The translations under genes were made by a program, and so were the position numbers. A stretch of DNA of 50,335 nucleotides, from contig JAFXOX010000045.1 of the NCBI GenBank assembly GCA_017528345.1, positions 1 to 50,335 of the forward strand, in the 5' to 3' direction. Shown here piece after piece: positions 2,862-35,581 of the stretch (positions within the stretch are counted from its first letter, which is position 1; each line of letters opens with the position of its first letter). Below the pieces are notes generated by a model, which saw only the letters and a program-made list of their open reading frames with translations, was not told the origin of the DNA and made no database searches. This DNA is from Desulfovibrio sp. (GTDB lineage Bacteria > Desulfobacterota > Desulfovibrionia > Desulfovibrionales > Desulfovibrionaceae).

Positions 2862-5025
2862 CACGTTCTCTGACATCTTCACGGATATCTTTTAGGTAGG
2901 AATGCAGCAGCCTCTTGGAGTGCCTGTCGAGGGTTTTTCCGTCATATTCCAGAATAAAAAGCATAACAAAACAACAAAGCTGTTCTTCAGAAAGCCCTGT
3001 GTCTCTTGCCATATCCTTCATTCTTTGAAAGATATCCTCGTATGCGCTGTTTGTGCTGAGCACCTCAAGACAGGCTTCAACCGACTGCATCTTGGCAAGA
3101 TTATCGTGCCAGATGCTTTGCAGCGCTGCAGCCAGGGTCTCGATACGGCTATCGTTTTCCGGAAGATCTGATAGCTCCATTGGCTCATCCATCACGCAGT
3201 GACATCCGTCTTCCCCAGGACCGACTGCCATGCCTGCGCTGTAATTTCCGAACATTGCTTTGATACCGCCAATGGCTGAATGGAGAAAGCTCCCATGCCC
3301 ATGGGCAAGCATTTGCGGAACCTGTTGGACTTGCGCCCGCTCGTGCACTTTTTCCGCTTCGTTGCGGTCAATGAGGAGAAAGAGTGAGGTTTGTTCGGAA
3401 AGGAGCTGCTGGGCAAGGGCAATGGATTTCTGTTCCTCCCTGGAGGATGCCTCCAGCATCTGCCGATATTTTCCAAGGCGAAAGAGATCTCCGCTTGCGA
3501 GCTCTTCCAGCTGATCTGCTGCTTCCGTGTGCGCGTTAGCCACTGTTTCCCAATGCAAAACAGGAACGGTCCTGGGATACGTTGTGCCCGTCACGGCAAA
3601 ACAATGGATCGTTTCCCCACCATAGAGAAATTTGGGCATTTTGGACTGCCAGCTGATCTCCTGAGGCCAGCTCACATGAATATTCTCTGCCCTTGCGCTG
3701 CGCATTTTCCCAAACATGCGCAGCACAGCCTCACCAATATCCTCATTTTCCGTCACAAACTCACAGGCGCCACCTGTCTGCTCAGCCATCTCGCGCAAAA
3801 GGCTTTCTGCCGGAGCATCCCCTACGCCAATGGCAAAAATGCGTTCTCCGGATTCCCTTGCGCTGGCAATGACGCCTTCGACATTCCAGATGTCGCCATC
3901 GGTGATGAGCAAAATTGCTGAGACAAATTCCTCAGACACAGGGATACTAAAGGTCTGCCGAAGCGCAGACTCCATCTCGGTTCCCCCAAGATCAGCGTGG
4001 GTCCTTTGGACAAGTTCTTTGAGATACGCGATCTTTTCTGGTGTACAGGGGATCACGCCATGCGTCTCACAAAGTGTACGAGACCCAAAACGGCTGAAAC
4101 TGACCCTGTCCGCTTCGGTAAGAGCATCGATTACCTGCTCAAGCCCTTTCTTCGCCAAATATATCCGTGTACCCTGCATAGAGCCTGAACAGTCCACGAG
4201 CATCTTCAGAACAATAGGCAGCTGATGCGCTGGCATTTCCGGCGCAAAGCTTGCCACAAGCATGGTCTCATCCCCGACAGTGCTTGCGCAGGCCAGGGAA
4301 TGACCTGGGATATCTTCAGCAAGCAGCACAAAATCGCGATCAAGAAAGGCGTTTCTTGAGAGAGAAAAGACCAGGCAATCGTCCTTGCGTTGCGCCTCAA
4401 TGTGATGGCTTGGGCAGGAGACTTTGGCCCGGGCAATCTCACCGAAAAGTTTGATCTCAAGGGTAAAGAGATAACGTGCCTGGTTGCTGACAGTCGCTGT
4501 TTCGTGGCTGGCCAATCCCCCTGAGATGTGCTCATCGCCGTAGCGCTCACTGATCACCGTTGGTATACACAGACGCACACGGTTTTCTTCAAAGCCAAGA
4601 AGTTTGGCGCAGCGGATTTCTATGGCAATACGCTCACCAGCTTTGATATTGCCGAGATTGAGCGTGCAAAGTCCTTTGGCTGACTTCTGCACAAGGATGG
4701 CACTGTTGCCCTCAGAAAGCGCCTTCTCATAGTTGTCTTCAGCCTGCTTCTTCTCAAGAACCTGCCCAGTCAAGCGCCTTTCACCGATTGTGGCGGCAAT
4801 GCCAAGCAAGGCGGTATTCCAGGCAACGGGGAAGGTATAGATGACCTCATGGGCCTCGCTATCCTCGTTGCTATAGGTCTGCGTAATGGTTGAGGAAAAA
4901 AGCAGCCCGTGCACCTCGCCACAGATATGCACTGACTTCAAAGGGATCTTAGAGACATCGCCCTCTGTGGATATGGAGCCAAAAGCCATAGTTTCACTGG
5001 CATGTAAAAGCATCTCTCCTGACAT
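2824..5025 (-). CDS. VIT domain / von Willebrand factor A domain protein
   Basis: A 733-residue protein with the architecture of inter-alpha-trypsin-inhibitor heavy-chain-like bacterial proteins: an N-terminal VIT domain (about 15-150, including EVIYTFPVAWNTAL and KAGERIAIEIRC), then a vWA domain beginning near residue 270. The MIDAS metal site is visible as DCSGSM (about 277) and a later LITDGD. A helical C-terminal region follows. No signal peptide is evident, so it is probably cytosolic. The start is supported by AAGGAG about 8 bases before the ATG. vWA domains with an intact MIDAS bind protein ligands through a divalent cation; the partner is unknown. It is transcribed divergently from the GTPase pair at 5412-7623, and a link between them is conjecture. 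Confidence 0.85.
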   Translation of the reverse strand: MSGEMLLHASETMAFGSISTEGDVSKIPLKSVHICGEVHGLLFSSTITQTYSNEDSEAHEVIYTFPVAWNTALLGIAATIGERRLTGQVLEKKQAEDNYEKALSEGNSAILVQKSAKGLCTLNLGNIKAGERIAIEIRCAKLLGFEENRVRLCIPTVISERYGDEHISGGLASHETATVSNQARYLFTLEIKLFGEIARAKVSCPSHHIEAQRKDDCLVFSLSRNAFLDRDFVLLAEDIPGHSLACASTVGDETMLVASFAPEMPAHQLPIVLKMLVDCSGSMQGTRIYLAKKGLEQVIDALTEADRVSFSRFGSRTLCETHGVIPCTPEKIAYLKELVQRTHADLGGTEMESALRQTFSIPVSEEFVSAILLITDGDIWNVEGVIASARESGERIFAIGVGDAPAESLLREMAEQTGGACEFVTENEDIGEAVLRMFGKMRSARAENIHVSWPQEISWQSKMPKFLYGGETIHCFAVTGTTYPRTVPVLHWETVANAHTEAADQLEELASGDLFRLGKYRQMLEASSREEQKSIALAQQLLSEQTSLFLLIDRNEAEKVHERAQVQQVPQMLAHGHGSFLHSAIGGIKAMFGNYSAGMAVGPGEDGCHCVMDEPMELSDLPENDSRIETLAAALQSIWHDNLAKMQSVEACLEVLSTNSAYEDIFQRMKDMARDTGLSEEQLCCFVMLFILEYDGKTLDRHSKRLLHSYLKDIREDVRERVRQDVQEFLLGA

Positions 5026-25554: not shown

Positions 25555-25987
25555 AAAGCACAATCCCTATAATTATTTAAACTAAAATTGAACTTTTTAT
25601 TTTTTTTGCAATTAACAAAGCTAATGTGCTTTTGATTTGTAAATCTATCATTTATATTAGATAAAATAATGACTTGTGAGAGTATTTTTAAACATCATTA
25701 TTACACTTTCAAAAAAACTACTGATCAAGAAGTTTAGATAAGTAGTTCATAGAATTGTATTGTAGATAAAATTAAAGAATGCAACATTATTTATCGGCAA
25801 TATTAAGTATCGCCTAACATAAGCAATACGAAGATTTAATAAAATATACCTGATTTAATTTGTGGATAGATTCTAGACAAACTTATTTGAATTGGATATG
25901 GCAATATCCATAGGGTAACACCCAAAAACGTTCTGCTTTCGGGTGCGATACGCATCGCCTCAATTCTCTGACCTTGCCACAGCCAGC
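25555..25987. other. AT-rich intergenic region
   Basis: This contains the upstream region of the glycosyltransferase gene and the 3' side of the Zur-like gene. A loose repeat CACCC (25920-25924) / GGGTG (25940-25944) could form a weak hairpin downstream of the Zur-like gene, but it has a long loop and no good T-run. No gene was seen. Confidence 0.5.
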
Positions 25988-26452
25988 TCAGCCATTTTCC
26001 CTCGCACAGGCATGACAAATGCCCTGCATTTCAATGGAGCCTTTTTCCAGGTTCATGCCTAATTCTTGAAATCGCTTCTGCAAAGCCCCGTAAAGCTCAG
26101 GATCATCCATTTCCTGAGCTTTTTTGCAGCGGGAGCAGACAAAAAGCAGGAGGGAGTTATCGTGATGCTCGCAGGTGCAGGGAAGATAGCTATTGATGGA
26201 GGCGATCTTGTGCACAAGACCACATTCCACGAGGAAATCGAGGGTTCGATAGATGGTGGCCGGAGTCAGACGTTTTCGAGTATGACTCAGCTTTTCAATA
26301 AGGTCATAGGCCTTGACGGGTCCCTGCTCCTCAAGCAAGCAGGTGAGGACCTGTCGGCGTAACGGTGTCAGACGCATCTTGCGTTCAAGGCAAATACGCT
26401 CGGCAAGTTCGAGACCAGAACGGACACAGTCTTCACATACAGCCGGTGCCAT
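25988..26452 (-). CDS. zur: Fur-family regulator, probably the zinc regulator Zur
   Basis: A protein of about 154 residues with the Fur fold: winged helix RLTPLRRQVLTCLLEE ... TPATIYRTLDFLVECGLVHKI, then the dimerisation domain with CEHHDNSLLLFVCSRC and a C-terminal CHAC. The two CxxC pairs are the structural zinc site, and Cys and His residues in CTCEHHD fit a sensory site. It is the last gene of a zinc-uptake-type operon (36 bases after the DUF3299-ZIP gene), which supports Zur rather than Fur or PerR; this is inference from context. With zinc bound it should repress, and the 22-bp motif at 29695 and 32780 is the candidate operator. ATG 26452 is preferred (GGGAG upstream). Confidence 0.82.
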   Translation of the reverse strand: MAPAVCEDCVRSGLELAERICLERKMRLTPLRRQVLTCLLEEQGPVKAYDLIEKLSHTRKRLTPATIYRTLDFLVECGLVHKIASINSYLPCTCEHHDNSLLLFVCSRCKKAQEMDDPELYGALQKRFQELGMNLEKGSIEMQGICHACARENG

Positions 26453-26488
26453 GGCAAGCACTCCCACTGAAGGTTGGAAACGCTCTTC

Positions 26489-27640
26489 TTAGAAAAGACC
26501 AAGATAGAGGGCGTGCATAATCAAAAAAAGCACGAAAAGACCAAGAGCAAAGCCCATACCGACGCGTTTCACACTGCCAAGCTGCAGCGCATGCGGCAAA
26601 AGTTCGCGCAAGGCAAGGGCTGTGAGAACACCACCTGCTGCCGACATGAGCAGGCGCATGGACTCAGGCGTAATGATGGCACGCACAAAGGCATAGGTTG
26701 CCATGGCAAGCAGAGGCGGCAGCACGCCTGCCACAAACGCGCAAACTGTAGCTCGGGAACTTTGTGGCAAGCCAAGGGCCAGGGAGATACCCAGGGGCAC
26801 ATTGTGGGCAAGCATAGCAATGGCCAGAGCAAAGCCCATGGGGCCACTTGCCAGGGAGATTGTCAGCACAAGGAAACATTCAGGGTAATTGTGCAGACCA
26901 AGCCCTGCCGCCACCGCGAGATCACTGTGACCAGAATGGGCATGACCGTGCCCTCGCAAAAGCAGTGCAAGCAGGATAAAAGTAATGGCAAAGGCGCAGG
27001 CGGCCTTGAGCGAAGCATTGGCATAAAGCGCTGAGAGGCCAAGACCAAGAAGCATTCCGCTTGCGCAGCTCATCGCAAGACAGGTCAGCGCATCCGAAAT
27101 TTTGCGTCCGGCAAAGGGCCCGACCCAACCAAAACAGACAGAAAGTCCGCACAGAGCCGTAAGCAGCCAGGCAAGCCATGGTCTTTCACCCTTGGCTGAT
27201 TCCTGCTCAAGCCTTGCCTCTACAAGCTCATAACCTGCCTGCCCATCACCTTCATCGAGCATAAGGCGACCACACACAGTCACGCTATCCATGGTTTCTA
27301 CACCGTTCACGCCCTTGGGCAGACGCACATGCACGATCTGATTGACAGGTGGCGGCGGCACATGGATACAGGCGCCAAAATACGGCACAAGCAGAAATTC
27401 ACAGAGGTGATTATCCTGGTCGCGCTCAAGAGGCACCACAAAACCGGAGAGACGAATCTCCTGCCCGGAAAGGCTGACATTGAGTTGCCCCTGGGCAGCA
27501 AGGCTCGGATTTTCAGGCAAAAGGTCCTGCCAGAGGAGATTGCGTGGCGCAGCTGATACGGTCGCAGCCCCAAGCAGGAGAACAAGGCAGCCTGCCACAA
27601 GGGCAACGAGACACGATGAGAGAAAAGCTGTTCTGGTCAT
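26489..27640 (-). CDS. DUF3299-ZIP fusion: periplasmic metal domain fused to ZIP zinc permease
   Basis: A 383-residue fusion. After a signal peptide (residues 1-30), residues about 35-150 form a DUF3299 domain with its hallmark VPYFGACIHVPPPPVNQIV. Residues about 160-383 form a ZIP-type permease with about eight membrane segments, a His-rich cytoplasmic loop (RGHGHAHSGHSD) and the ZIP metal motifs GLGLHNYPECF and AIAMLAHNVPLGIS. ZIP proteins bring Zn2+ and related ions into the cytoplasm. In the Vibrio Zrg system the corresponding parts are, as I recall, separate proteins; here they are one chain. The start overlaps the permease stop (ATGA), showing tight coupling. Confidence 0.88.
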   Translation of the reverse strand: MTRTAFLSSCLVALVAGCLVLLLGAATVSAAPRNLLWQDLLPENPSLAAQGQLNVSLSGQEIRLSGFVVPLERDQDNHLCEFLLVPYFGACIHVPPPPVNQIVHVRLPKGVNGVETMDSVTVCGRLMLDEGDGQAGYELVEARLEQESAKGERPWLAWLLTALCGLSVCFGWVGPFAGRKISDALTCLAMSCASGMLLGLGLSALYANASLKAACAFAITFILLALLLRGHGHAHSGHSDLAVAAGLGLHNYPECFLVLTISLASGPMGFALAIAMLAHNVPLGISLALGLPQSSRATVCAFVAGVLPPLLAMATYAFVRAIITPESMRLLMSAAGGVLTALALRELLPHALQLGSVKRVGMGFALGLFVLFLIMHALYLGLF

Positions 27641-28899
27641 AGCGAAACCGTCAAACCATCCGAGAGACTCAGGCGATAGGCCTTATAGGCTGGCAGAAGA
27701 CTTGCCAAAAAGCCGGCAAGACAGATGCCCAGAAGGAGCAGCCATTCCCCACTGCCAGGAGCAGCAAGTGTCAGGTAGATGCCATAGTGTTCTGCAAGAA
27801 AAGGCGCACAGAGGGCAAGCAGGCCATAGAGCACAAGCAAACCACAGGCTGTACCCCCTACGACCAAAAGCAACCCTTCCATAGCCATAAGCCAGAGGAT
27901 ATCCCAGGGGCTTGCCCCTGCTGAGCGCAAGATAGCAAGTTCTCGCCTGCGTTCGCCAAGACCGGCCAAAATGGAGGCGACCAGCCCCACCAGCCCCACA
28001 ACCGTGACAAGGGCTGAGATGGCGAACAATGCCCGTTCCCCCACATTGACCATGTCCCAAATCTGGTTCATGGCAACTCCCGGCAAAACCGCCGTCAAAG
28101 GCTCTCCTTCCTGCTCATTGATCTCCCGCTGCAGGGCAAAAACCTGCGAGCGTTTCTTCAGCCCCACAAGCAAGGCCGTGATGGCACGCGGTTCAAGCTT
28201 TGCCATGGTTTCTGCATCCATCTCCACGTTCTGAGGGATGCCGTTTTGCCAGGAAAGATGAATAGCTTCCATGGCAGCGAGACTGATATAAAGCGAGCGG
28301 TCAACGGGAGTGCCCGTAGGGGCAAGGATGCCTGACACGGTAAACGGTGTCGCCTTGTGCTCAGACTGCGCATTGCCCCCCTGGCCGTGACTGAGAATGA
28401 TCTTTGTACCAAGGCTGTAGCCAAGGCTTTTGGCGACTTCTGCGCCCAAAACCACATCCAGCAGTTCCTTGTTTTTTTTCCCTGCGGCCATGCGCAGAGA
28501 CTTGCCCTGGCTGTAATGGTACCTGGTGTAAAACGTGTCATTTGTGGCCACCACGGGAAAATCTCTGTGGGTATCGCCCAGAGAGATGGGGATGGAAAAG
28601 GCAACCTGTGGCTTTTGGCTGATGGCCTGAGCCTGGTCATAGCCCATATTATTTGTTGCACTTCCCAGGTGAAAGACCGCATAGAGCACAAGCTGAAGGG
28701 TACTTCCCCGAGCTCCAACCACCAGATCAAGGCCGGAGACAGCCTGGACAAAATTCTCCCGCACCTGGCTTCGCAGCTTTTCAATACCCAAAAGCAGCGT
28801 TGTGGAAAGGGCTATGGAAAAGACAATGAGCAAAAGCGTACCCCGCCTGTTCCAGGCGCTTTTGCAGGCAAGCTGCCAGAGATAGCCGAAATGGCCCAT
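27637..28899 (-). CDS. FtsX/LolE-type ABC transporter permease
   Basis: A 420-residue permease of the MacB/LolCE class: one membrane segment near residues 17-37 (TLLLIVFSIALSTTLLLGI), a periplasmic domain of about 220 residues (MacB_PCD), then three membrane segments in an FtsX domain (about 275-415; GERRRELAILRSAGASPWDI is the coupling region). Such transporters usually do mechanical work on periplasmic partners rather than import. In the Zrg-type locus the role is metal-related but unclear. It overlaps its ATPase by one base (TGATG) with a strong GGGGGG-A ribosome site, and the ZIP fusion by four. Confidence 0.88.
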   Translation of the reverse strand: MGHFGYLWQLACKSAWNRRGTLLLIVFSIALSTTLLLGIEKLRSQVRENFVQAVSGLDLVVGARGSTLQLVLYAVFHLGSATNNMGYDQAQAISQKPQVAFSIPISLGDTHRDFPVVATNDTFYTRYHYSQGKSLRMAAGKKNKELLDVVLGAEVAKSLGYSLGTKIILSHGQGGNAQSEHKATPFTVSGILAPTGTPVDRSLYISLAAMEAIHLSWQNGIPQNVEMDAETMAKLEPRAITALLVGLKKRSQVFALQREINEQEGEPLTAVLPGVAMNQIWDMVNVGERALFAISALVTVVGLVGLVASILAGLGERRRELAILRSAGASPWDILWLMAMEGLLLVVGGTACGLLVLYGLLALCAPFLAEHYGIYLTLAAPGSGEWLLLLGICLAGFLASLLPAYKAYRLSLSDGLTVSL

Positions 28900-29627
28900 C
28901 AGCTTTCCCCCCTCTCGATCTTATTGATATCCTGCATACGTACAGTGCGGGGAAACGCCTCAGCAAGGACCTCGTCGTGGCTCACAAAAAGCAGCGCTGT
29001 GCCCTGACTGATACATTCCTCGAGCAAAAGATGTAGAAAGGCCACGCGCCTGTCGGAGTCCAGTGCAGAGGTGGGTTCATCGGCAATGATCAGCTCAGGC
29101 TGTCCGATGAGGGCTCTGGCACAGGCCACCCGCTGCTGCTGCCCGATAGACAAGGTGCGGACAGGCTTGCTCCAAAGCGTCTCTTCAAGATCCAGCCGCT
29201 GCAACAGCATTTTCACCACATCTTTCAAGTTTTTCCCCTGTTCCTTGGCCTGCTTCAACCTGCGCTGTGAAAAACGACAGGGTATGAGCACGTTTTCCAC
29301 GACCGAAAGATAGGGCACAAGATTGAACTGCTGAAAAATAAAGCCGATATGATCACCACGAAAACGGTCACGTCCGGCACTGCCAAGACTGTCAAGGGCA
29401 CAGCCCTGAACAAGGACATCGCCTTCCGTGGGAACAAGGATGCCCGCAATAAGTCCTAAAAGCGTACTTTTGCCACAGCCGCTGGGCCCTGAAATAAAGA
29501 CACGCTCGCCCTGACTCATGGAAAAATGCGGAATATGCAGCGTCTCACTTTCAGCACCTGGCCAGCGAAAGCGCACATTTTCTAGCCGTATTGCCAGCAT
29601 TTTATGCTTGTCTTGCGTTGTTTGCAT
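28899..29627 (-). CDS. LolD-type ABC transporter ATP-binding protein
   Basis: A 242-residue ATPase partner of the following FtsX-type permease. Walker A is GPSGCGKST, the Q-loop IGFIFQQFNLVPYLSV, the signature LSIGQQQRVACARAL (one residue off the usual LSGGQ), Walker B LIIADEPTSALD, and the switch His VSHDE. It is the first gene of the zinc operon; start ATG 29627 has GGAAG just upstream. The leader carries a candidate Zur operator at 29695-29716. Confidence 0.9.
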   Translation of the reverse strand: MQTTQDKHKMLAIRLENVRFRWPGAESETLHIPHFSMSQGERVFISGPSGCGKSTLLGLIAGILVPTEGDVLVQGCALDSLGSAGRDRFRGDHIGFIFQQFNLVPYLSVVENVLIPCRFSQRRLKQAKEQGKNLKDVVKMLLQRLDLEETLWSKPVRTLSIGQQQRVACARALIGQPELIIADEPTSALDSDRRVAFLHLLLEECISQGTALLFVSHDEVLAEAFPRTVRMQDINKIERGES

Positions 29628-29654
29628 GCTTCCATCCCATCTCTAAATGCGAAA

Positions 29655-29686
29655 AGCCCTGTTCCCGAAAGAGAGCATACAGGGCT
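29655..29686 (-). promoter_or_regulatory. Leader hairpin of the zinc operon
   Basis: The inverted repeat AGCCCTGT (29655-29662) / ACAGGGCT (29679-29686) lies between the candidate operator and the ATG of the first gene. Read on the minus strand it is followed by TTTT, so it could act as a weak attenuator or simply protect the transcript. Confidence 0.35.
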
Positions 29687-29694
29687 GTGCGGAA

Positions 29695-29716
29695 AATGAT
29701 ATATCGTTGCATCTTT
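29695..29716 (-). promoter_or_regulatory. Candidate Zur operator, zinc ABC-ZIP operon
   Basis: The 22-base motif AATGATATATCGTTGCATCTTT (given here as two parts: AATGATATATCG then TTGCATCTTT) differs in only three positions from 32780-32801, the site ahead of the DUF2796 gene. Its core AACGATATATCATT (minus strand) is an imperfect dyad, as expected for a Fur-superfamily site. It lies about 68 bases before the first gene of the operon that ends in the Zur-like gene. Confidence 0.65.
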
Positions 29717-30272
29717 GTCAATGCCTCACCCTTCCCATTCTCCCCAAAAACGCAGTAACGACGTTTTGTACAAGCAGATCCAGCAAATTTCACAAGACGA
29801 GGCGATTTGCTGCGACAGCCAGCGAGCCAAGTAAACGCGGCCTTTTCTTTGCTCGCCACAAGCTCTCTCATTGCTCAAGCGCCTTGCCAGGGTCACGATA
29901 AGTGCGTCTCCGTGGGATAAGCAGGCACTGAGCAATGCGACAATGCTGCCTGCAAAATAGCCACATACCATGCACGCGTAACCTTCGTAACAGGCCTACA
30001 ATGAAGCTTCTTCCGTTTTTCCTAGGTAATATATTATGGGCAAACAGATACTTGCCATGGACTTGCACTTAAGCATATACTTCAAGTAGCTTCAAACCTA
30101 TCATACTGGTGTTTCTCTTGACGCAACGTTCTTGCCAAGCCCCTTTCTGAAGCTTGAACCGCAAGATCTTTATAGTTGTGAGCAAGAGACAGCTGGTCAA
30201 TCTTTTTCTCTTTGCACCGATTGCCTGCGTTTTTCCCTACGCTACGGGCAAGCTGCGCTTAGGAGAACGACG
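29717..30272. other. Intergenic region between zinc operon and EAL gene
   Basis: About 550 bases between divergent genes. Several short minus-strand open frames are present (for example within 29726-29971 and 29868-30068), but none has a family signature or start signal. The stretch just before the EAL gene could encode 47 more codons from a TTG at 30132. No operator was recognised on the EAL side. Confidence 0.45.
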
Positions 30273-31865
30273 GTGAATGCGGCTGAAAATGCTATCTTGT
30301 CACTTCTTTTGCATGGCCAATACGCTGACGCACTGGCTGCCTTGGATGACGTCTCAAATCCGGCAACAGAAGAGCTTTTGCGGACGTTAGTGCTCGGCCT
30401 TTCTGAAGCCTCAGGTTATATTCAGACGCTCTGTGAAGGACGTCTGGCCATAGCCCCTCCCTGTCCCGATAACCCCTTCTGCAACAGTCTGAAACGCCTG
30501 CAGAACGTTATGGGACACAGGCAGCAGACAGAAATTGATGAGACTCTTGAGACCACACACGCCTTTAACAAGGATATTGAAACAGGGCTTTTAAGCCGCC
30601 GGTCCTTTCTCTGGGAGGTCCGTGACCTTCTGGAAAAACAGCCAAAGGCCACGGGTGTGCTCTTTGCCGTAGGGCTCGACAACCTGCGCTATGTCAATGA
30701 CAAGCATGGCTATGAAAGTGGCGACATCTACATTGCCAAGGTTGTGGAAATTCTCAGGATGTGTCAGGCGCCCAATGTGCGTCTTTCCAGGCCTGCCGGT
30801 GACGAATTTGCGGTCTATGCCCACGGTTTTGAGAGTGAAAATGAGGCTCTGGAGTTTGCGCAGCAGACACGCAAGCGTCTTCTGAATACCATTCTTGACC
30901 TTCCTGGCGAAACCATACGTCTCAGAACATCTCAGGGCGCAGCCCTTTACCCGAACGATGCGCTCTCCAGTGACGTGCTTCTGAACTATGCAACCCACGC
31001 TATGTTCAGTGTACAGAATTTCAATCGCGGCACGTTCATGCGCTTCAATCCAGAAATCTACCGTGCCAAGGCTGCCATGCTCAGTCGGCAGGAGCGCCTG
31101 GATGAGCTGATTGATGAACGCTGCATTCACTTTGCCTTTCAGCCTGTTGTCAATCTCCGGGATGCCTCAATCTACGGCTATGAGGCCCTGATGCGTTCCT
31201 TGCGCTCAGATTTCCCCTCACCCTTGGATATTCTGCAGCTCGCTGAAGTGCAGTACAAGCTCCCTCAGCTTGAATATGTGACCTTTCTCGTCATCTTTGA
31301 CTGGGTAGCAGAGCATCTCCAAAGGCTCGGCCCTCGAAAGATCTTCTTCAATATCATCTCAGCCAGATACCTGAATGAGGAGGAGCTCAAAAAGCTCCAT
31401 GCCAATTACAAAAATATTGTGCGCCATATGGTCATCGAAATCACAGAAACGTCCTCCATCGAAGGCGAGATGACCCGTCTCATCAATAAGTTCCGCAAGG
31501 ACTTCTCTACCCTCATCGCCATTGATGACTATGGCTGCGCCTATTCCAATATTTATCGACTGGTCAATCTGTCCCCTGAGATCGTCAAGCTCGACCGCTT
31601 TTTCATCAGCGAAATTCACAAGGCCTCGCCTGATCGTCAGAAACTCATCACCAATTTTCTCAGTTATTGCCATAGCAAGAATATCCTCACTGTGGCTGAA
31701 GGCGTGGAAACTGTTGAAGAGCTAGAATGTGTCGTCAAAATGGGATTTGACCTCTGCCAGGGCTATTATCTGGGGCGCCCAGAATTTGAGCTGCAGGAAG
31801 TGCCGACCAAACAGGCAGAGGAAATCCGTCGTTTTGCCGCCGAGGCAGCAGCGGCGAAAAAATAA
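30273..31865 (+). CDS. GGDEF(degenerate)-EAL cyclic-di-GMP signalling protein
   Basis: A soluble protein of about 530 residues. The start GTG 30273 is set by AGGAG at 30261-30265; the frame stays open upstream to a TTG at 30132 but with no ribosome site. The GGDEF domain has RPAGDEF (AGDEF, about residue 176), one residue off consensus, so cyclase activity is doubtful. The EAL domain has YEALMRS (about 303), EITETSS, IDDYGCAYSN in place of DDFGxGYSS, KLDRFFI and EGVET; most catalytic residues are kept, but the loop is changed. It lies alone, between the two zinc transcription units. A zinc link is suggested only by position. Confidence 0.85.
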   Translation: MNAAENAILSLLLHGQYADALAALDDVSNPATEELLRTLVLGLSEASGYIQTLCEGRLAIAPPCPDNPFCNSLKRLQNVMGHRQQTEIDETLETTHAFNKDIETGLLSRRSFLWEVRDLLEKQPKATGVLFAVGLDNLRYVNDKHGYESGDIYIAKVVEILRMCQAPNVRLSRPAGDEFAVYAHGFESENEALEFAQQTRKRLLNTILDLPGETIRLRTSQGAALYPNDALSSDVLLNYATHAMFSVQNFNRGTFMRFNPEIYRAKAAMLSRQERLDELIDERCIHFAFQPVVNLRDASIYGYEALMRSLRSDFPSPLDILQLAEVQYKLPQLEYVTFLVIFDWVAEHLQRLGPRKIFFNIISARYLNEEELKKLHANYKNIVRHMVIEITETSSIEGEMTRLINKFRKDFSTLIAIDDYGCAYSNIYRLVNLSPEIVKLDRFFISEIHKASPDRQKLITNFLSYCHSKNILTVAEGVETVEELECVVKMGFDLCQGYYLGRPEFELQEVPTKQAEEIRRFAAEAAAAKK

Positions 31866-31921
31866 TGCGAGACTGCGCCTGACCAGGCAAATGACTTTGC
31901 TGGAAAGAAAGCTCAAAACCC

Positions 31922-31961
31922 AAAAAGAGGGGGTACCTTGCTAGGTATCCCCTCTTTTTTT
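31922..31961. terminator. Bidirectional rho-independent terminator
   Basis: AAAAAGAGGGG-G-TACC (31922-31937) pairs with GGTA-T-CCCCTCTTTTT (31944-31959) with a single mismatch and a 6-base loop. T-runs on both strands serve the convergent EAL gene and the DUF2796 gene. Confidence 0.9.
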
Positions 31962-32040
31962 AGGCAGCGCTTTCCGGACAACGTCCTTGCTGATCTGCGG
32001 CAGGATGAGCCGCCATAAATGCGCTGCGCGTTTCGCCTGC

Positions 32041-32580
32041 TCACTGCCAAGTAACAGATGGATCCTTGGCCTCTAGCTTCGCCGCACGCTGCCCAAAAGG
32101 CCCGACTACTTCCAGGGCAATCTCTCTGATGGCAGGAAATGTCTCAAAAAGCGTCGTCCTCAGCCCACGGAGCTTTTCAGGCTTCTCGCAGCTTACGGCA
32201 ATTTCCATATGGATATTGGCATGTTCATGACCGTGACCATGTTCATGTCCATGCTCTTCATGGTGACCAGCCTGCTTTGTGAAAGCGGGTCCTTCCAGAT
32301 GCTTGACCTGCATGTTGCAGACAGCTTCTGGACTGAGGACAAAAAGTTCTTCGGGATGTGCCAATTTGTTTTGCAGGGCCAAAGCTTGCGTGATCTCTTC
32401 AGAAGTTTGCGGAACGTATTCAAAAGGTAAAAAATTGGCCTGAGCTGAAAAAAGGCTCATTTCACCGCTCTGCTCTTCAAGGGCCAGGGTCAGCTGCACA
32501 TGACCGTGTACATGTGCTTCATGGGCAAAACAAGGACGTACTAAAAGCGTAAGAAATAGCAGCAAAAAGCAACGAAGCAT
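32041..32580 (-). CDS. zrgA: DUF2796 (ZrgA-like) His-rich periplasmic zinc protein
   Basis: A 179-residue exported protein. The signal peptide MLRCFLLLFLTLLVRPCFA is followed by a metal-binding N-terminus HEAHVHGHVQLTLALEE, typical of DUF2796. A His/Glu-rich tract at about 110-128 (HHEEHGHEHGHGHEHAN) should bind zinc. GGAGG sits just before the ATG at 32580. In Vibrio, ZrgA belongs to a zinc-regulated uptake system with ABC and ZIP components; the same parts lie at 26.0-29.6 kb here but in a separate transcription unit. The shared 22-base motif upstream supports co-regulation. Confidence 0.85.
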   Translation of the reverse strand: MLRCFLLLFLTLLVRPCFAHEAHVHGHVQLTLALEEQSGEMSLFSAQANFLPFEYVPQTSEEITQALALQNKLAHPEELFVLSPEAVCNMQVKHLEGPAFTKQAGHHEEHGHEHGHGHEHANIHMEIAVSCEKPEKLRGLRTTLFETFPAIREIALEVVGPFGQRAAKLEAKDPSVTWQ

Positions 32581-32959
32581 GCATCCTCCACCGTTTTGTT
32601 CGTAGCCTGAGGCATCTGTGGGCAAGCGCGACGCTGCGTTGTGCTCCTTACCTGATCCCACACCAGAGCCGCCCAAAAATGCGGCACATCCACCTCAAGG
32701 GCTCCCTTGCCATACATTCCCAAAAAGAGCAGCTCAAGCTGCTCTCTGTTTAAGGCTAGCAAAGGCTTCCAAAAAATACAATGATATATTATTGCATTTT
32801 TTGCCAAGGATGCTCCCCGCTTTCCCCTTTGAAGCCTATCTGTGAATTCTCAACCTTAGGTTCGAGTCTTCTGACTCGTTACTGTGATGCACGCTTTTTT
32901 GGGGAACTGTGCCGAAGCGAGCTTTTTCCAGAGCTCCATCGTTCGCTCACGCGGCTATC
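32581..32959. other. Upstream region of the DUF2796 gene
   Basis: About 380 bases between two minus-strand genes. It contains the candidate Zur operator at 32780-32801 and presumably the zrgA promoter. No other gene or clear terminator for the histidine kinase operon was seen. Confidence 0.5.
32780..32801 (-). promoter_or_regulatory. Candidate Zur operator, DUF2796 gene
   Basis: The 22-base motif AATGATATATTA-TTGCATTTTT matches the motif at 29695-29716 in 19 of 22 positions. On the minus strand the surrounding 24 bases form an imperfect palindrome with half-sites AATGCAATAATA and AATACAATGATA (10 of 12 identical). It lies about 200 bases before the ATG, so a long leader or a more distal promoter is implied. 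Confidence 0.62.
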
Positions 32960-35581
32960 TTAGGCTGAAAACTGTTGCAAAACATAGGCCTTAGCCGTAT
33001 CAACCAGTGACTGCCCAAGCTTCAAGGCCTCGGCATGTCGTGTTTCCAGCAGAGCCAGCTGTACTTCCTTGTCCTGAGCCCCGTTAATCTGGGCCTTGGC
33101 GGCCATTTCTAGCATTTTGGCCAAGTCAGAAAGGCGCTCACCACCTATGGAGCGGGATGAAGATTTGAGGGCATGGATAAAGATGGCGTAGTTTGTCCAG
33201 TCCTTATTGGCAAAGCTTGTCTCCAGCTCTTCCTTCTTCTTGGGCCAAAGCTGACAGAACATACTCAGAAGATCATGGTAAAGACTATGGTCGCCGCCGC
33301 AGTAGCCGAGGCCAAGAGCGTCATTGAATTCTGAGGGCAAATCGTTTTCTGTGGTCTTTTTTTCCACATTCATGGTAGCCTCTTCTGTTTTGGTGGCTTC
33401 AGGCGCCTGCTCTGACAGATGTTCCTGCGCTGCCTCTTCCACAGGCTGAGAAATCGGGGATTCTTCGCTATCTTCCTCGCTAGTCAGAAAGACCTTATCC
33501 TTGGGCAGAAAACGCACCAGAATTTTTTCCAGTTGCTCACCCTGCACGGGTTTACTCAAATATTCCGCAAAACCTTCTGCCAAAAGCGCTTCTCGTGCTC
33601 CTGATGTGGCATTGGCCGTAAAGACAATGAAGGGCATGTCCGCACAAGCGACAATTTTTCTTGCCGCATGCATTGTCTGGACACCATCCATTTCAGGCAT
33701 CATCTGATCCAGTAAAACCAGATCATAGTAATTGTTGAGTAATCTGCTCAGGCATTCGCGGCCACTGCGGCAGGTATCGATGCTCATGCCCGTTTCCTTG
33801 AGAAGACTGACCACCACAAAGAGATTCATCTCGTTGTCGTCGACCACAAGAATGCGGGCTGTGGGAGCATGAAAGAAGGCGCGGTGAAGTTTTTTCTCCT
33901 GATGGAGAACCTTCATGGAAAAGCTGCCGATGGGCTTGGCATCGGAAATTTGTTGCGGCAAAAGCACCGTAAAGGTACTGCCAACCCCATACTCACTCTC
34001 AAAAGAAATGGTTCCGCCCATGCGCTTCACGAGGTCATTGGTAATGGCCAGGCCAAGACCCGTGCCTTCGATATTGCGGTTGTGCTCGGGATCAAAACGC
34101 TCAAATCCGTGAAAAAGTTTGGCTTTGTCAGCTTCCTGAATACCAATACCTGTGTCGGCAATGACAAGCCAAAGAACAAGCTGTTGCTCGCTCTGCTGCT
34201 CAAAGTTCACGCTGAGGCGTACAGAGCCCTCACGCGTGTATTTCACGGCATTGGTCAGGAGATTGATGATAATCTGCTGAATGCGCACCATATCACCGCA
34301 CAAGCCATCCGGCAAAAGCGGATCCACATGCACGCTAAAATACAGGTGCTTCTGCCGTGCCCGCGGGGCAATCATCATGGCCACATCACTGAGCAAGGTG
34401 CTGACTTTATACACCGTTGGCACAATTTCCAGCTTGCCGCTTTCGATACGTGAAAAGTCCAGGATATCATTAATGATAGCCAGGAGCGTCTCACTGGCCT
34501 GCTTAATATTGTGGGCATAATCATTGAGTCTTGGATTGTCTGACTCGCGCAGAATCATCTCATTCATGCCCATGATGGCATTGACAGGAGTACGGATTTC
34601 ATGGCTCATGCTGGCCAGAAAAGCACTCTTGGCCCGATTCGATTTATCAGCGAGCTCCTTTTCGCGACTTAAGATCTCGCTCTCTTCAGTCCTCGCCTGC
34701 AACACAAGAAAGGTGATGCAGATCAGGGCAAAAACCAGCAGAATAAGTACAAGAATCATGAGCATCTGATCGTGAACTCGGGCAATATTGCCGACAACGG
34801 TTGTCAACGGCACATAGCCGACTAACGAACAATTGGTACGGGGCAAATCTGCCCCAAAAAGGAAGAAGCGGCCCTGTTTGCTCTCCACATAGACCGAGGC
34901 AGAATGCTGTAAAAAGAGCATACGCCTGATCTCGGTAAAGCCTTCAACAACCTCGTGCGTGCGGAAAAATTCGCGATCCTGGTAGTTGAAATTCTTATAG
35001 GGCACAATGGTGAGACCGCTGCGCTCCTGGATGAGCACACGGATGTCCTTATTGTAGTCAGCAAGGCCAAAGAGATCCACAAGCAGGGAATTTTCGTAGA
35101 GACGGTAGATAAGGCATGTGACATTGCCCTGACGGAAGACCGGGACAATAAAGACAAGACCTAAGGAGGGATGATAGTCAATGACGTCTTTGCCACGCAT
35201 GGCAATGGTGAGCCTGGGGAAATCTGTCGCAGAAAGAGCCGGTCCAAAGAGAGGGGTTCCGTCAACTCGCATCAGGCCAATATGCGCGCCCTTGCGCAGG
35301 CTGCGGGCACGGATCTGAAAAAAGCGTGTACGCTGTTCAAGCTCGTAGGGTTCAATATACTCGGCAGCCAGACGCAGACTGACCAACTCACGTTCAAAGC
35401 GCTCTTCGGCCATAATGGAGAGATCGACTGTCTGACGGGCGACATTCTGCTCCAAACTGACAATCAAAAGCTTTCCCAGCTTGTACTGCAAAAGGACACC
35501 GACTGCGGCAAGACCAAGCACAAGAGCAATAACCAGGAAAATTCTTCTGACAAGACGCGTCGCACGCTGCGATCTATTCAA
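32960..35581 (-). CDS. Hybrid sensor histidine kinase (sensor-HisKA-HATPase-REC-Hpt)
   Basis: An 873-residue membrane kinase. Membrane segments at about 14-34 and 275-298 enclose a large periplasmic sensor. The HisKA site is SHEIRTP (His about 328), followed by an HATPase domain with GTGLGLAI, a receiver domain (LVVDDNEMN; phospho-Asp in LVLLDQMMPEMDG, about 622), an acidic linker and an Hpt domain with the phospho-His in FIHALKSSSRS (about 802). All four phosphorelay sites are intact. The start is TTG 35581 within the end of the BMP gene (8-base overlap), behind GGAG. The binding protein and the HD-GYP regulator in the same operon are the likely sensor partner and phosphate acceptor. Confidence 0.9.
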   Translation of the reverse strand: MNRSQRATRLVRRIFLVIALVLGLAAVGVLLQYKLGKLLIVSLEQNVARQTVDLSIMAEERFERELVSLRLAAEYIEPYELEQRTRFFQIRARSLRKGAHIGLMRVDGTPLFGPALSATDFPRLTIAMRGKDVIDYHPSLGLVFIVPVFRQGNVTCLIYRLYENSLLVDLFGLADYNKDIRVLIQERSGLTIVPYKNFNYQDREFFRTHEVVEGFTEIRRMLFLQHSASVYVESKQGRFFLFGADLPRTNCSLVGYVPLTTVVGNIARVHDQMLMILVLILLVFALICITFLVLQARTEESEILSREKELADKSNRAKSAFLASMSHEIRTPVNAIMGMNEMILRESDNPRLNDYAHNIKQASETLLAIINDILDFSRIESGKLEIVPTVYKVSTLLSDVAMMIAPRARQKHLYFSVHVDPLLPDGLCGDMVRIQQIIINLLTNAVKYTREGSVRLSVNFEQQSEQQLVLWLVIADTGIGIQEADKAKLFHGFERFDPEHNRNIEGTGLGLAITNDLVKRMGGTISFESEYGVGSTFTVLLPQQISDAKPIGSFSMKVLHQEKKLHRAFFHAPTARILVVDDNEMNLFVVVSLLKETGMSIDTCRSGRECLSRLLNNYYDLVLLDQMMPEMDGVQTMHAARKIVACADMPFIVFTANATSGAREALLAEGFAEYLSKPVQGEQLEKILVRFLPKDKVFLTSEEDSEESPISQPVEEAAQEHLSEQAPEATKTEEATMNVEKKTTENDLPSEFNDALGLGYCGGDHSLYHDLLSMFCQLWPKKKEELETSFANKDWTNYAIFIHALKSSSRSIGGERLSDLAKMLEMAAKAQINGAQDKEVQLALLETRHAEALKLGQSLVDTAKAYVLQQFSA

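What the first reader, a model, noticed from the sequence alone, without database searches (positions are those of the whole stretch)
29695..32801. Same 22-bp motif before both zinc transcription units
29695-29716 and 32780-32801 match in 19 of 22 bases, are partly palindromic, and lie upstream of the ABC-DUF3299/ZIP-Zur operon and the DUF2796 (ZrgA-like) gene respectively. Because a Fur-family regulator is the last gene of one of these units, this is a strong candidate operator for an autoregulated Zur circuit. The site predicts a regulon that can be searched genome-wide.
Basis: partly seen in the sequence, partly recalled or inferred. Interest (0 to 1): 0.75.

Follow-up and report, generated by a model that had tools for sequence, protein, structure and literature searches.

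The report
Split zinc operon with twin operators
Two near-identical DNA sites stand before the two halves of a zinc-related gene set that is one unbroken cluster in nearly all relatives examined; they are predicted to be switches at which a likely zinc sensor (Zur), encoded in one half, would turn both halves off when zinc is plentiful.

Summary
In detail: the two sites match in 19 of 22 bases. Such a match is not rare in 50 kb, but it is for these two intergenic regions (2 of 2000 shuffles). In relatives the motif stands before the same genes: a pattern made from it gives 19 hits in 17 of 199 family genomes, none for the reversed control, all at zinc or zur loci. It tracks a Zur-type regulator (15 of 17 motif genomes, 3 of 182 others), also without zrgA (G102). 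The operator is a 26-bp near-palindrome that fits the published E. coli Zur contact pattern and differs from the 17-bp Zur box predicted for Desulfovibrio in 2004. Here and in two sister genomes (L094, L241) a GGDEF-EAL gene splits it and each half has its own operator. In this genome only these two places match a 19-bp pattern with at most one mismatch. Zur binding and zinc response are untested.

The parts
29689..29714 (-). Operator 1 (26-bp near-palindrome AGATGCAACGATATATCATTTTCCGC read on the minus strand), before the ABC-FtsX-DUF3299/ZIP-zur half
   Evidence: orthologous sites in L094 at 7180 and L241 at 6968
29716..29721 (-). TTGACA (-35-like hexamer) abutting operator 1
   Evidence: direct reading; no standard -10 found at normal spacing
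32774..32799 (-). Operator 2 (26-bp near-palindrome AAATGCAATAATATATCATTGTATTT read on the minus strand), before zrgA; about 206 bp from its centre to the probable ATG
   Evidence: orthologous sites in L094 at 4422 and L241 at 4645
32802..32807 (-). TTGGCA, a degenerate -35-like hexamer beside operator 2
   Evidence: direct reading
25988..26467 (-). zur (Fur family, Zur-like), last gene of the ABC half
   Evidence: PF01475 53.6 bits; best solved-structure matches 7dh7 and E. coli Zur 4mtd; below the NCBIfam Zur cut-off
26489..27640 (-). DUF3299 domain fused to a ZIP (ZupT-like) membrane part
   Evidence: PF11736 112.4 bits; NF003243 ZupT at residues 241-373, 65.1 bits, below its cut-off
27637..28899 (-). 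FtsX/MacB-type permease (ZrgB-like)
   Evidence: PF02687 and PF12704
28899..29627 (-). ABC ATPase (ZrgC-like)
   Evidence: PF00005 110.2 bits
32041..32580 (-). zrgA, with the start placed at the ATG before the signal-peptide-like stretch
   Evidence: PF10986 136.8 bits (longer reading frame to 32676); NF047873 below its cut-off
30132..31865 (+). GGDEF-EAL gene that separates zrgA from the ABC half (convergent with zrgA, divergent from ABC)
   Evidence: PF00563 141.4 bits, PF00990 60.5 bits; same place in L094 and L241

Best explanation
The two sites are copies of one 26-bp near-palindromic operator, likely bound by zinc-loaded Zur (predicted product of 25988-26467), which would repress both halves of a zrg-type zinc cluster, zrgA alone and ABC-FtsX-DUF3299/ZIP-zur, when zinc is sufficient. 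Shown: both copies are in the sequence; the same element precedes the unsplit, zrgA-first cluster in relatives; it tracks this Zur clade; and in the window and two sister genomes a GGDEF-EAL gene splits the cluster and each half carries its own operator. Inferred: the operator overlaps the promoter (a TTGACA abuts most Desulfovibrio-type copies), so bound Zur would block RNA polymerase, and loss of zinc would free both promoters together. Because zur is the last gene of one half, the loop would be autoregulatory. The operator can be read as two overlapping 17-bp boxes with centres 5 bp apart, each with one strong ATGCAAY half-site, so two Zur dimers probably bind side by side as in E. coli. 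The second operator probably arose as a copy when the cluster was split, keeping the halves co-regulated; which copy is older is not resolved.
For: 19 pattern hits in 17 of 199 family genomes with 0 control hits, at zinc or zur loci. All 16 genomes with an over-cut-off zrgA have it. Zur-clade model at 165 bits or more in 15 of 17 motif genomes and 3 of 182 others (Fisher 8e-18). Motif before zur and an ABC ATPase gene where zrgA is absent: G102; G216 likewise has it before zur and an ABC gene, zrgA not searched there. Named loci: 19 of 23 with motif have zur in the locus, 5 of 57 without. Split order and both operators in L094 and L241, one clade with support 100/99. Operators are the islands of conservation between window and L094. 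Consensus fits the E. coli Zur contact pattern. Zur-like protein. In the five Campylobacterota loci with the motif it is turned round and has no TTGACA, so the body is not just a promoter.
Against: No binding or expression data. The Zur-clade model was built from 15 of the 18 genomes it finds, and genomes are related, so the association is overstated. G056 has motif and zrgA-ABC-FtsX but no such zur; G123, G194 and G141 have the zur without a motif hit (G123's contig begins inside the ABC gene; the other two not examined). No standard sigma-70 promoter at either site. The window Zur lacks the Arg52 of the E. coli dimer-dimer salt bridge (Ser61). L132, outside the split clade, has the operator directly before ABC and no zrgA match in its genome, so an operator before ABC need not come from the split.
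Confidence: 0.82

Rival explanations
1. The conserved block is a promoter (TTGACA and an AT-rich -10 region) kept for RNA polymerase, not an operator.
For: TTGACA at a fixed distance in most Desulfovibrio-type copies.
Against: The conserved body is a near-palindrome; in L118, L119, L121, L123 and L125 it is turned round relative to the genes and no TTGACA abuts it; the promoter scan finds no standard promoter there; a pattern without TTGACA still finds only zinc or zur loci in the family.
Confidence: 0.06
2. The operator is real but read by another Fur-family protein (Fur or PerR type), sensing iron or peroxide.
For: The genome has a second PF01475 protein with a much stronger Fur-family score, 118.2 bits against 53.8; the site is AT-rich and resembles Fur-type boxes.
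Against: The motif is limited to 17 of 199 genomes and follows the Zur clade, not the weaker Fur-family matches that the same model finds in many other genomes; all family hits are at zinc or zur loci; none of the sites examined precedes an iron gene that I recognised.
Confidence: 0.08
3. The similarity of the two sites is chance or a by-product of AT-richness.
For: 19/22 pairs occur several times in shuffled windows.
Against: 2 of 2000 shuffles for the two intergenic regions; both sites conserved in two sister genomes; 19 hits against 0 control hits in the family.
Confidence: 0.02
4. Both operators are functional, but the second one did not arise with the split: zrgA and the ABC half came together from two sources, each with its own operator.
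For: L132/G200 has the operator directly before ABC and no zrgA match; the zrgA-side copies of window and L094 have a degenerate -35.
Against: In trees the split clade is nested among clusters with zrgA next to ABC, L102 being nearest (98/93); L132 does not group with it in the FtsX tree (long branch). No zrgA tree was made.
Confidence: 0.25

Closest known systems
Zur-regulated zrgABCDE of Vibrio (PMC9817125 and PMC9820375, passages) and PA4063-PA4066 of Pseudomonas aeruginosa (PMC11481552, passages)
   Same: Same gene kinds: ZrgA (DUF2796), ABC ATPase, MacB-like permease, DUF3299; controlled by Zur there
   Different: Here zur is in the cluster, DUF3299 is fused to a ZIP part, the cluster is split by a GGDEF-EAL gene, and the operator sequence is another: a putative Vibrio site is TGAGTGTTATATTATAACACCCG
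Predicted Zur box of Desulfovibrio znuABC-zur, ATGCAACNNNGTTGCAT (Rodionov 2004, PMC545781, passages)
   Same: Same half-site ATGCAAY
   Different: There one 17-bp palindrome; here a 26-bp composite. No genome of 199 had both an exact 17-bp box and the composite
E. coli Zur and its operators (PMC4219657, passages)
   Same: Regulator similar over nearly its whole length; the consensus fits the 18-bp combined purine/pyrimidine pattern of two overlapping dimers at all eight positions; counterparts of Tyr45 and Arg65 present
   Different: Other bases between the contacts; Arg52 of the dimer-dimer salt bridge is Ser here
Autoregulated zur in operon with znuABC (review PMC6103462, passages)
   Same: zur inside the operon it is predicted to repress
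   Different: Other transporter type, and two promoters instead of one

Membership tests
Zur (zinc uptake regulator) proteins | Fur-family fold with closest relatives among Zur, not Fur or PerR | tested here: met
   PF01475 over cut-off; 7dh7 1e-26 and E. coli Zur 3e-25 against PerR 3e-06
Zur (zinc uptake regulator) proteins | NCBIfam equivalog cut-off for Zur | tested here: not met
   NF008646 is the best NCBIfam match, but 109.6 bits against a cut-off of 167
Zur (zinc uptake regulator) proteins | DNA-reading Tyr45 and Arg65 of E. coli Zur | tested here: met
   Y54 and R74 by the alignment; both invariant in 15 aligned relatives
Zur (zinc uptake regulator) proteins | Zinc-dependent repression | not testable with these tools
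   needs binding and expression experiments
Zur box of the E. coli type | Purine/pyrimidine pattern RxxxYRxxR*YxxYRxxxY at the dyad | tested here: met
   27 of 27 distinct sites, both window sites included (sites were chosen by similarity, so in effect one test)
Desulfovibrio Zur box of 2004 (ATGCAACNNNGTTGCAT) | 17-bp palindrome with N3 centre | tested here: not met
   no exact match anywhere in this genome
zrg (ZrgABCDE / PA4063-PA4066) system | ZrgA, ABC ATPase, MacB-like permease and DUF3299 genes present | tested here: met
   ZrgA is below the NCBIfam cut-off (88.9 against 185 bits) but over Pfam's
zrg (ZrgABCDE / PA4063-PA4066) system | Genes contiguous as one operon | tested here: not met
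   zrgA is separated from ABC by the GGDEF-EAL gene
zrg (ZrgABCDE / PA4063-PA4066) system | Role in zinc-limited growth | not testable with these tools

The most novel reading that the evidence does not exclude
A self-regulating zinc cassette (zrg genes with their own Zur and their own composite operator) has spread between phyla and, in one Desulfovibrio lineage, was split around a cyclic-di-GMP gene while both halves stayed under Zur by doubling of the operator; the enclosed GGDEF-EAL gene, which shares its upstream region with the ABC-side operator, has itself come under Zur, so that zinc starvation also changes c-di-GMP.
Probability: 0.15. Interest if true: 0.7.

Novelty: new variant of a known kind. 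Interest (0 to 1): 0.45.

Why it matters
It gives one group of Desulfovibrio-type bacteria a predicted Zur operator with a testable consensus that differs from the one predicted in 2004, names its likely regulator, and predicts a two-promoter regulon in a genome with no ZnuA match. The split genomes are a small natural experiment in how an operon can be broken without losing co-regulation: in all three both halves carry the operator. If this transporter is the organism's main answer to zinc starvation, the circuit also bears on an open question, whether zrg/PA4063-type MacB-like systems import zinc or export a metallophore complex, on which the papers whose passages I saw differ.

Tried and rejected
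Chance from the pair alone could not be rejected over the whole window, so I turned to relatives.

Regulon beyond the two sites: weak own-genome hits were looked at. Those in C29 (2 mismatches), C74, C70 and C11 (3 each) lie inside reading frames, C11 and C70 close to a start; C17 lies about 230 bp before an RND-type adaptor gene; C22 lies about 25 bp before the reading frame of a 492-aa protein without a Pfam match at E 0.01, which looks porin-like to me. I count these as unproven. Of the other 8, the flanks of seven were listed and I recognised no zinc gene; G230:C60 was not examined. In the loci, second hits with 2 mismatches (such as those in G200 and G201) were not followed up, and that scan had 3 reversed-pattern control hits.

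A standard sigma-70 promoter at the operators: not found; the one promoter-like match in 29500-33000 is fewer than in shuffles, mean 2.3. Terminator-like sites: at shuffle level. RNA families in 25900-33500: none. The search for related loci with the single fusion protein found nothing; the FtsX alignment gave 238 relatives, of which the best 80 were kept.

Literature: searches. I saw no paper on this operator or on the split cluster in those listings, but the listings are capped and RegPrecise itself could not be searched. The Vibrio report of a zinc-regulated c-di-GMP phosphodiesterase (PMC12607878) was seen as title and start of abstract only.
Full report
Observation. Over the whole 50-kb window such pairs are not rare by chance (3 shuffles: 3-6 direct, 6-7 inverted; observed 159 and 15, the window holding other repeats), but between the two intergenic regions only 2 of 2000 shuffle pairs reach 19/22. 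The pair alone is suggestive; relatives had to decide.

Genes. Behind site 1, on the minus strand: ABC ATPase, FtsX/MacB permease, a 383-aa protein with DUF3299 (residues 48-144) and a ZupT-like C-terminal part (residues 241-373), and a Fur-family gene. Behind site 2: zrgA (PF10986, 136.8 bits; below the NCBIfam ZrgA cut-off). Between them, on the plus strand, a GGDEF-EAL gene. The Fur-family protein matches 7dh7 (E 1e-26) and E. coli Zur 4mtd (3e-25) far better than PerR (3e-06) or Fur, though it stays below NCBIfam's Zur cut-off. Counterparts of the DNA-reading Tyr45 and Arg65 are present (Y54, R74). The genome has no ZnuA match and one other PF01475 protein.

Relatives. Of 199 genomes of the family, 16 have an over-cut-off zrgA. 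In 15 of these zrgA lies next to the ABC gene; the window is the exception. Before zrgA stands TTGACA-N2-AATGCAATAATATATCATT or a variant, the reverse complement of the window motif. The pattern AAATGCAAYNNTATATCATT with up to 1 mismatch gives 19 hits (18 places) in 17 genomes and no reversed-pattern hit. Sixteen of the 17 are the zrgA genomes; in G063 the site is on a contig that overlaps the start of the zrgA contig by 99 bases. The 17th, G102, has no zrgA match: its site precedes zur, followed by an ABC ATPase gene. G216 shows the same order. So the site follows zur rather than zrgA.

Association with Zur. A model of this Zur clade scores 165 bits or more in 18 of 199 genomes; the next score is 76.7. 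The model was built from 15 of those 18 genomes, so the count is not blind, but the gap is wide. Fifteen of 17 motif genomes and 3 of 182 others have it (Fisher 8e-18; the genomes are related, so this overstates the evidence). Exceptions: G056 has the motif and zrgA-ABC-FtsX without such a zur; the G119 contig ends soon after the DUF3299-ZIP gene; G123, G194 and G141 have the zur without a motif hit, G123's contig beginning inside the ABC gene. Among the 80 named loci kept of 238 relatives, 23 have the motif (16 or more of 19 bases, within 500 bp of zrgA or ABC) and 19 of them have zur in the locus; of the 57 without it 5 have zur. The 23 include Desulfovibrio MAGs, Wohlfahrtiimonas, Helicobacteraceae and Campylobacteraceae MAGs and MAGs deposited as Accumulibacter. 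The FtsX tree mixes these groups (a Desulfovibrio MAG and an Accumulibacter MAG pair with support 99), which suggests transfer of the cassette, with the caution that MAG names and bins can be wrong.

Form of the operator. The element is a 26-bp near-palindrome, consensus AAATGCAATAATATATCATTKCATTT. It can be read as two 17-bp boxes with centres 5 bp apart, each with one ATGCAAY half-site and one weak half. In E. coli two Zur dimers bind overlapping sites, and the published combined pattern is RxxxYRxxR*YxxYRxxxY (PMC4219657, passages). All 27 distinct sites (of 35 given) fit all eight positions at the dyad; of the 12 other registers tested, shifts of -5 (23 of 27), +5 (19) and -3 (5) also give full matches and the rest none. 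Since the sites were chosen by similarity, this amounts to one test of the consensus, not 27. The salt-bridge residue Arg52 of E. coli is Ser61 here, so side-by-side binding is less certain than single-dimer binding. The earlier predicted Desulfovibrio Zur box is ATGCAACNNNGTTGCAT before znuABC-zur (Rodionov 2004, PMC545781, passages). Exact copies occur in 43 of 199 genomes, none of which has the composite motif (Fisher 0.026). Of 20 such loci stored I scanned 8 neighbouring genes, chosen because they looked like ZnuA; all 8 are ZnuA.

Promoter or operator. A TTGACA abuts the element in most Desulfovibrio-type copies (not in operator 2 of the window, TTGGCA, nor in the zrgA copy of L094), but no standard -10 follows. 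In five Campylobacterota loci (L118, L119, L121, L123, L125) the element faces the other way and no TTGACA abuts it. I conclude that the palindromic body is the conserved regulatory part and that it overlaps the promoter; blocking of RNA polymerase is an inference.

The split. Of 67 named loci with zrgA, 66 have the ABC gene starting within 700 bp after it; the exception, L094 (Desulfovibrio sp. RUI329), has the window's order: kinase, zrgA, GGDEF-EAL on the other strand, ABC, FtsX, DUF3299-ZIP, zur. The G235 contig (L241) has the same order and both operators. The three form one clade in the FtsX tree (100/99); L102, with zrgA-ABC-FtsX together, comes next (98/93). In L102 the best site, 15 of 19, lies about 1 kb before zrgA. 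Between window and L094 the conserved island before ABC is the operator with its TTGACA (28 of 30 bases), and before zrgA the operator core (18 of 20), while neighbouring 10-base blocks match 1-6 of 10. The simplest history is one split, with the operator coming to stand before both halves. The source of the second copy is unresolved: L132, outside this clade, has the operator directly before ABC and no zrgA match in its genome.

Regulon. In the window's genome (2.9 Mb, 85 contigs) only the two sites match AATGCAAYNATATATCATT with at most 1 mismatch; three more places match with 3, with no control hit. With another form of the pattern one further place matches with 2 mismatches, inside a reading frame. 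None is a clear zinc gene. The predicted regulon is therefore these two transcription units.

What the genes do. ZrgA is needed for zinc-limited growth through zrgABCDE in V. cholerae (PMC9820375, passages), while PA4063-PA4066 of P. aeruginosa was proposed to export a pyochelin-cobalt complex (PMC11481552, passages). The regulatory claim does not depend on the direction of transport.

The enclosed GGDEF-EAL gene. It converges with zrgA and diverges from ABC, so the ABC-side operator lies in its upstream region: about 115 bp from its reading frame in L241, about 420 bp in the window. A Zur effect on it is possible but unproven; the one promoter-like match before it in the window lies well away from the operator (not above shuffles). 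A zinc-regulated c-di-GMP phosphodiesterase is reported in V. cholerae (PMC12607878, title and start of abstract only).

Noticed in passing
26489-27640, and 14 further fusion proteins in the named loci: DUF3299, a domain named as of unknown function, is fused to a ZIP-type membrane part. The second HNxPxG-like motif of the ZIP part reads P-L-G in 13 of 15 fusions (P-V-G in L094, none found in L122), where the usual motif as I recall it has Glu.
   Followed up: partly
L094 7435-8052: A MerR-HTH plus resolvase gene (IS607-like, the name recalled) lies between the operator and the ABC gene in the sister genome.
   Followed up: partly
L078 and L242: In two same-genus genomes the same operator precedes zur followed by an ABC ATPase gene, not the zrg cluster.
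   Followed up: partly
L130, L133, L134, L136, L138, L144, L160: Upstream regions of zrg clusters in Cupriavidus, Herbaspirillum and other betaproteobacteria hold ATGCAAC-N3-GTTGCAT-like palindromes, like the Desulfovibrio box of 2004.
   Followed up: no
31923-31962: By eye, a strong inverted repeat with A and T runs between the convergent GGDEF-EAL and zrgA genes looks like a two-way terminator; the terminator scan did not list it.
   Followed up: no
G000:C22 about 3125-3143 (L195): A 3-mismatch operator-like site lies about 25 bp before the reading frame of a porin-like 492-aa protein without a Pfam match.
   Followed up: partly
window, whole: The window has 159 direct 19/22 pairs against 3-6 in shuffles, so other repeated DNA lies elsewhere in it.
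   Followed up: no
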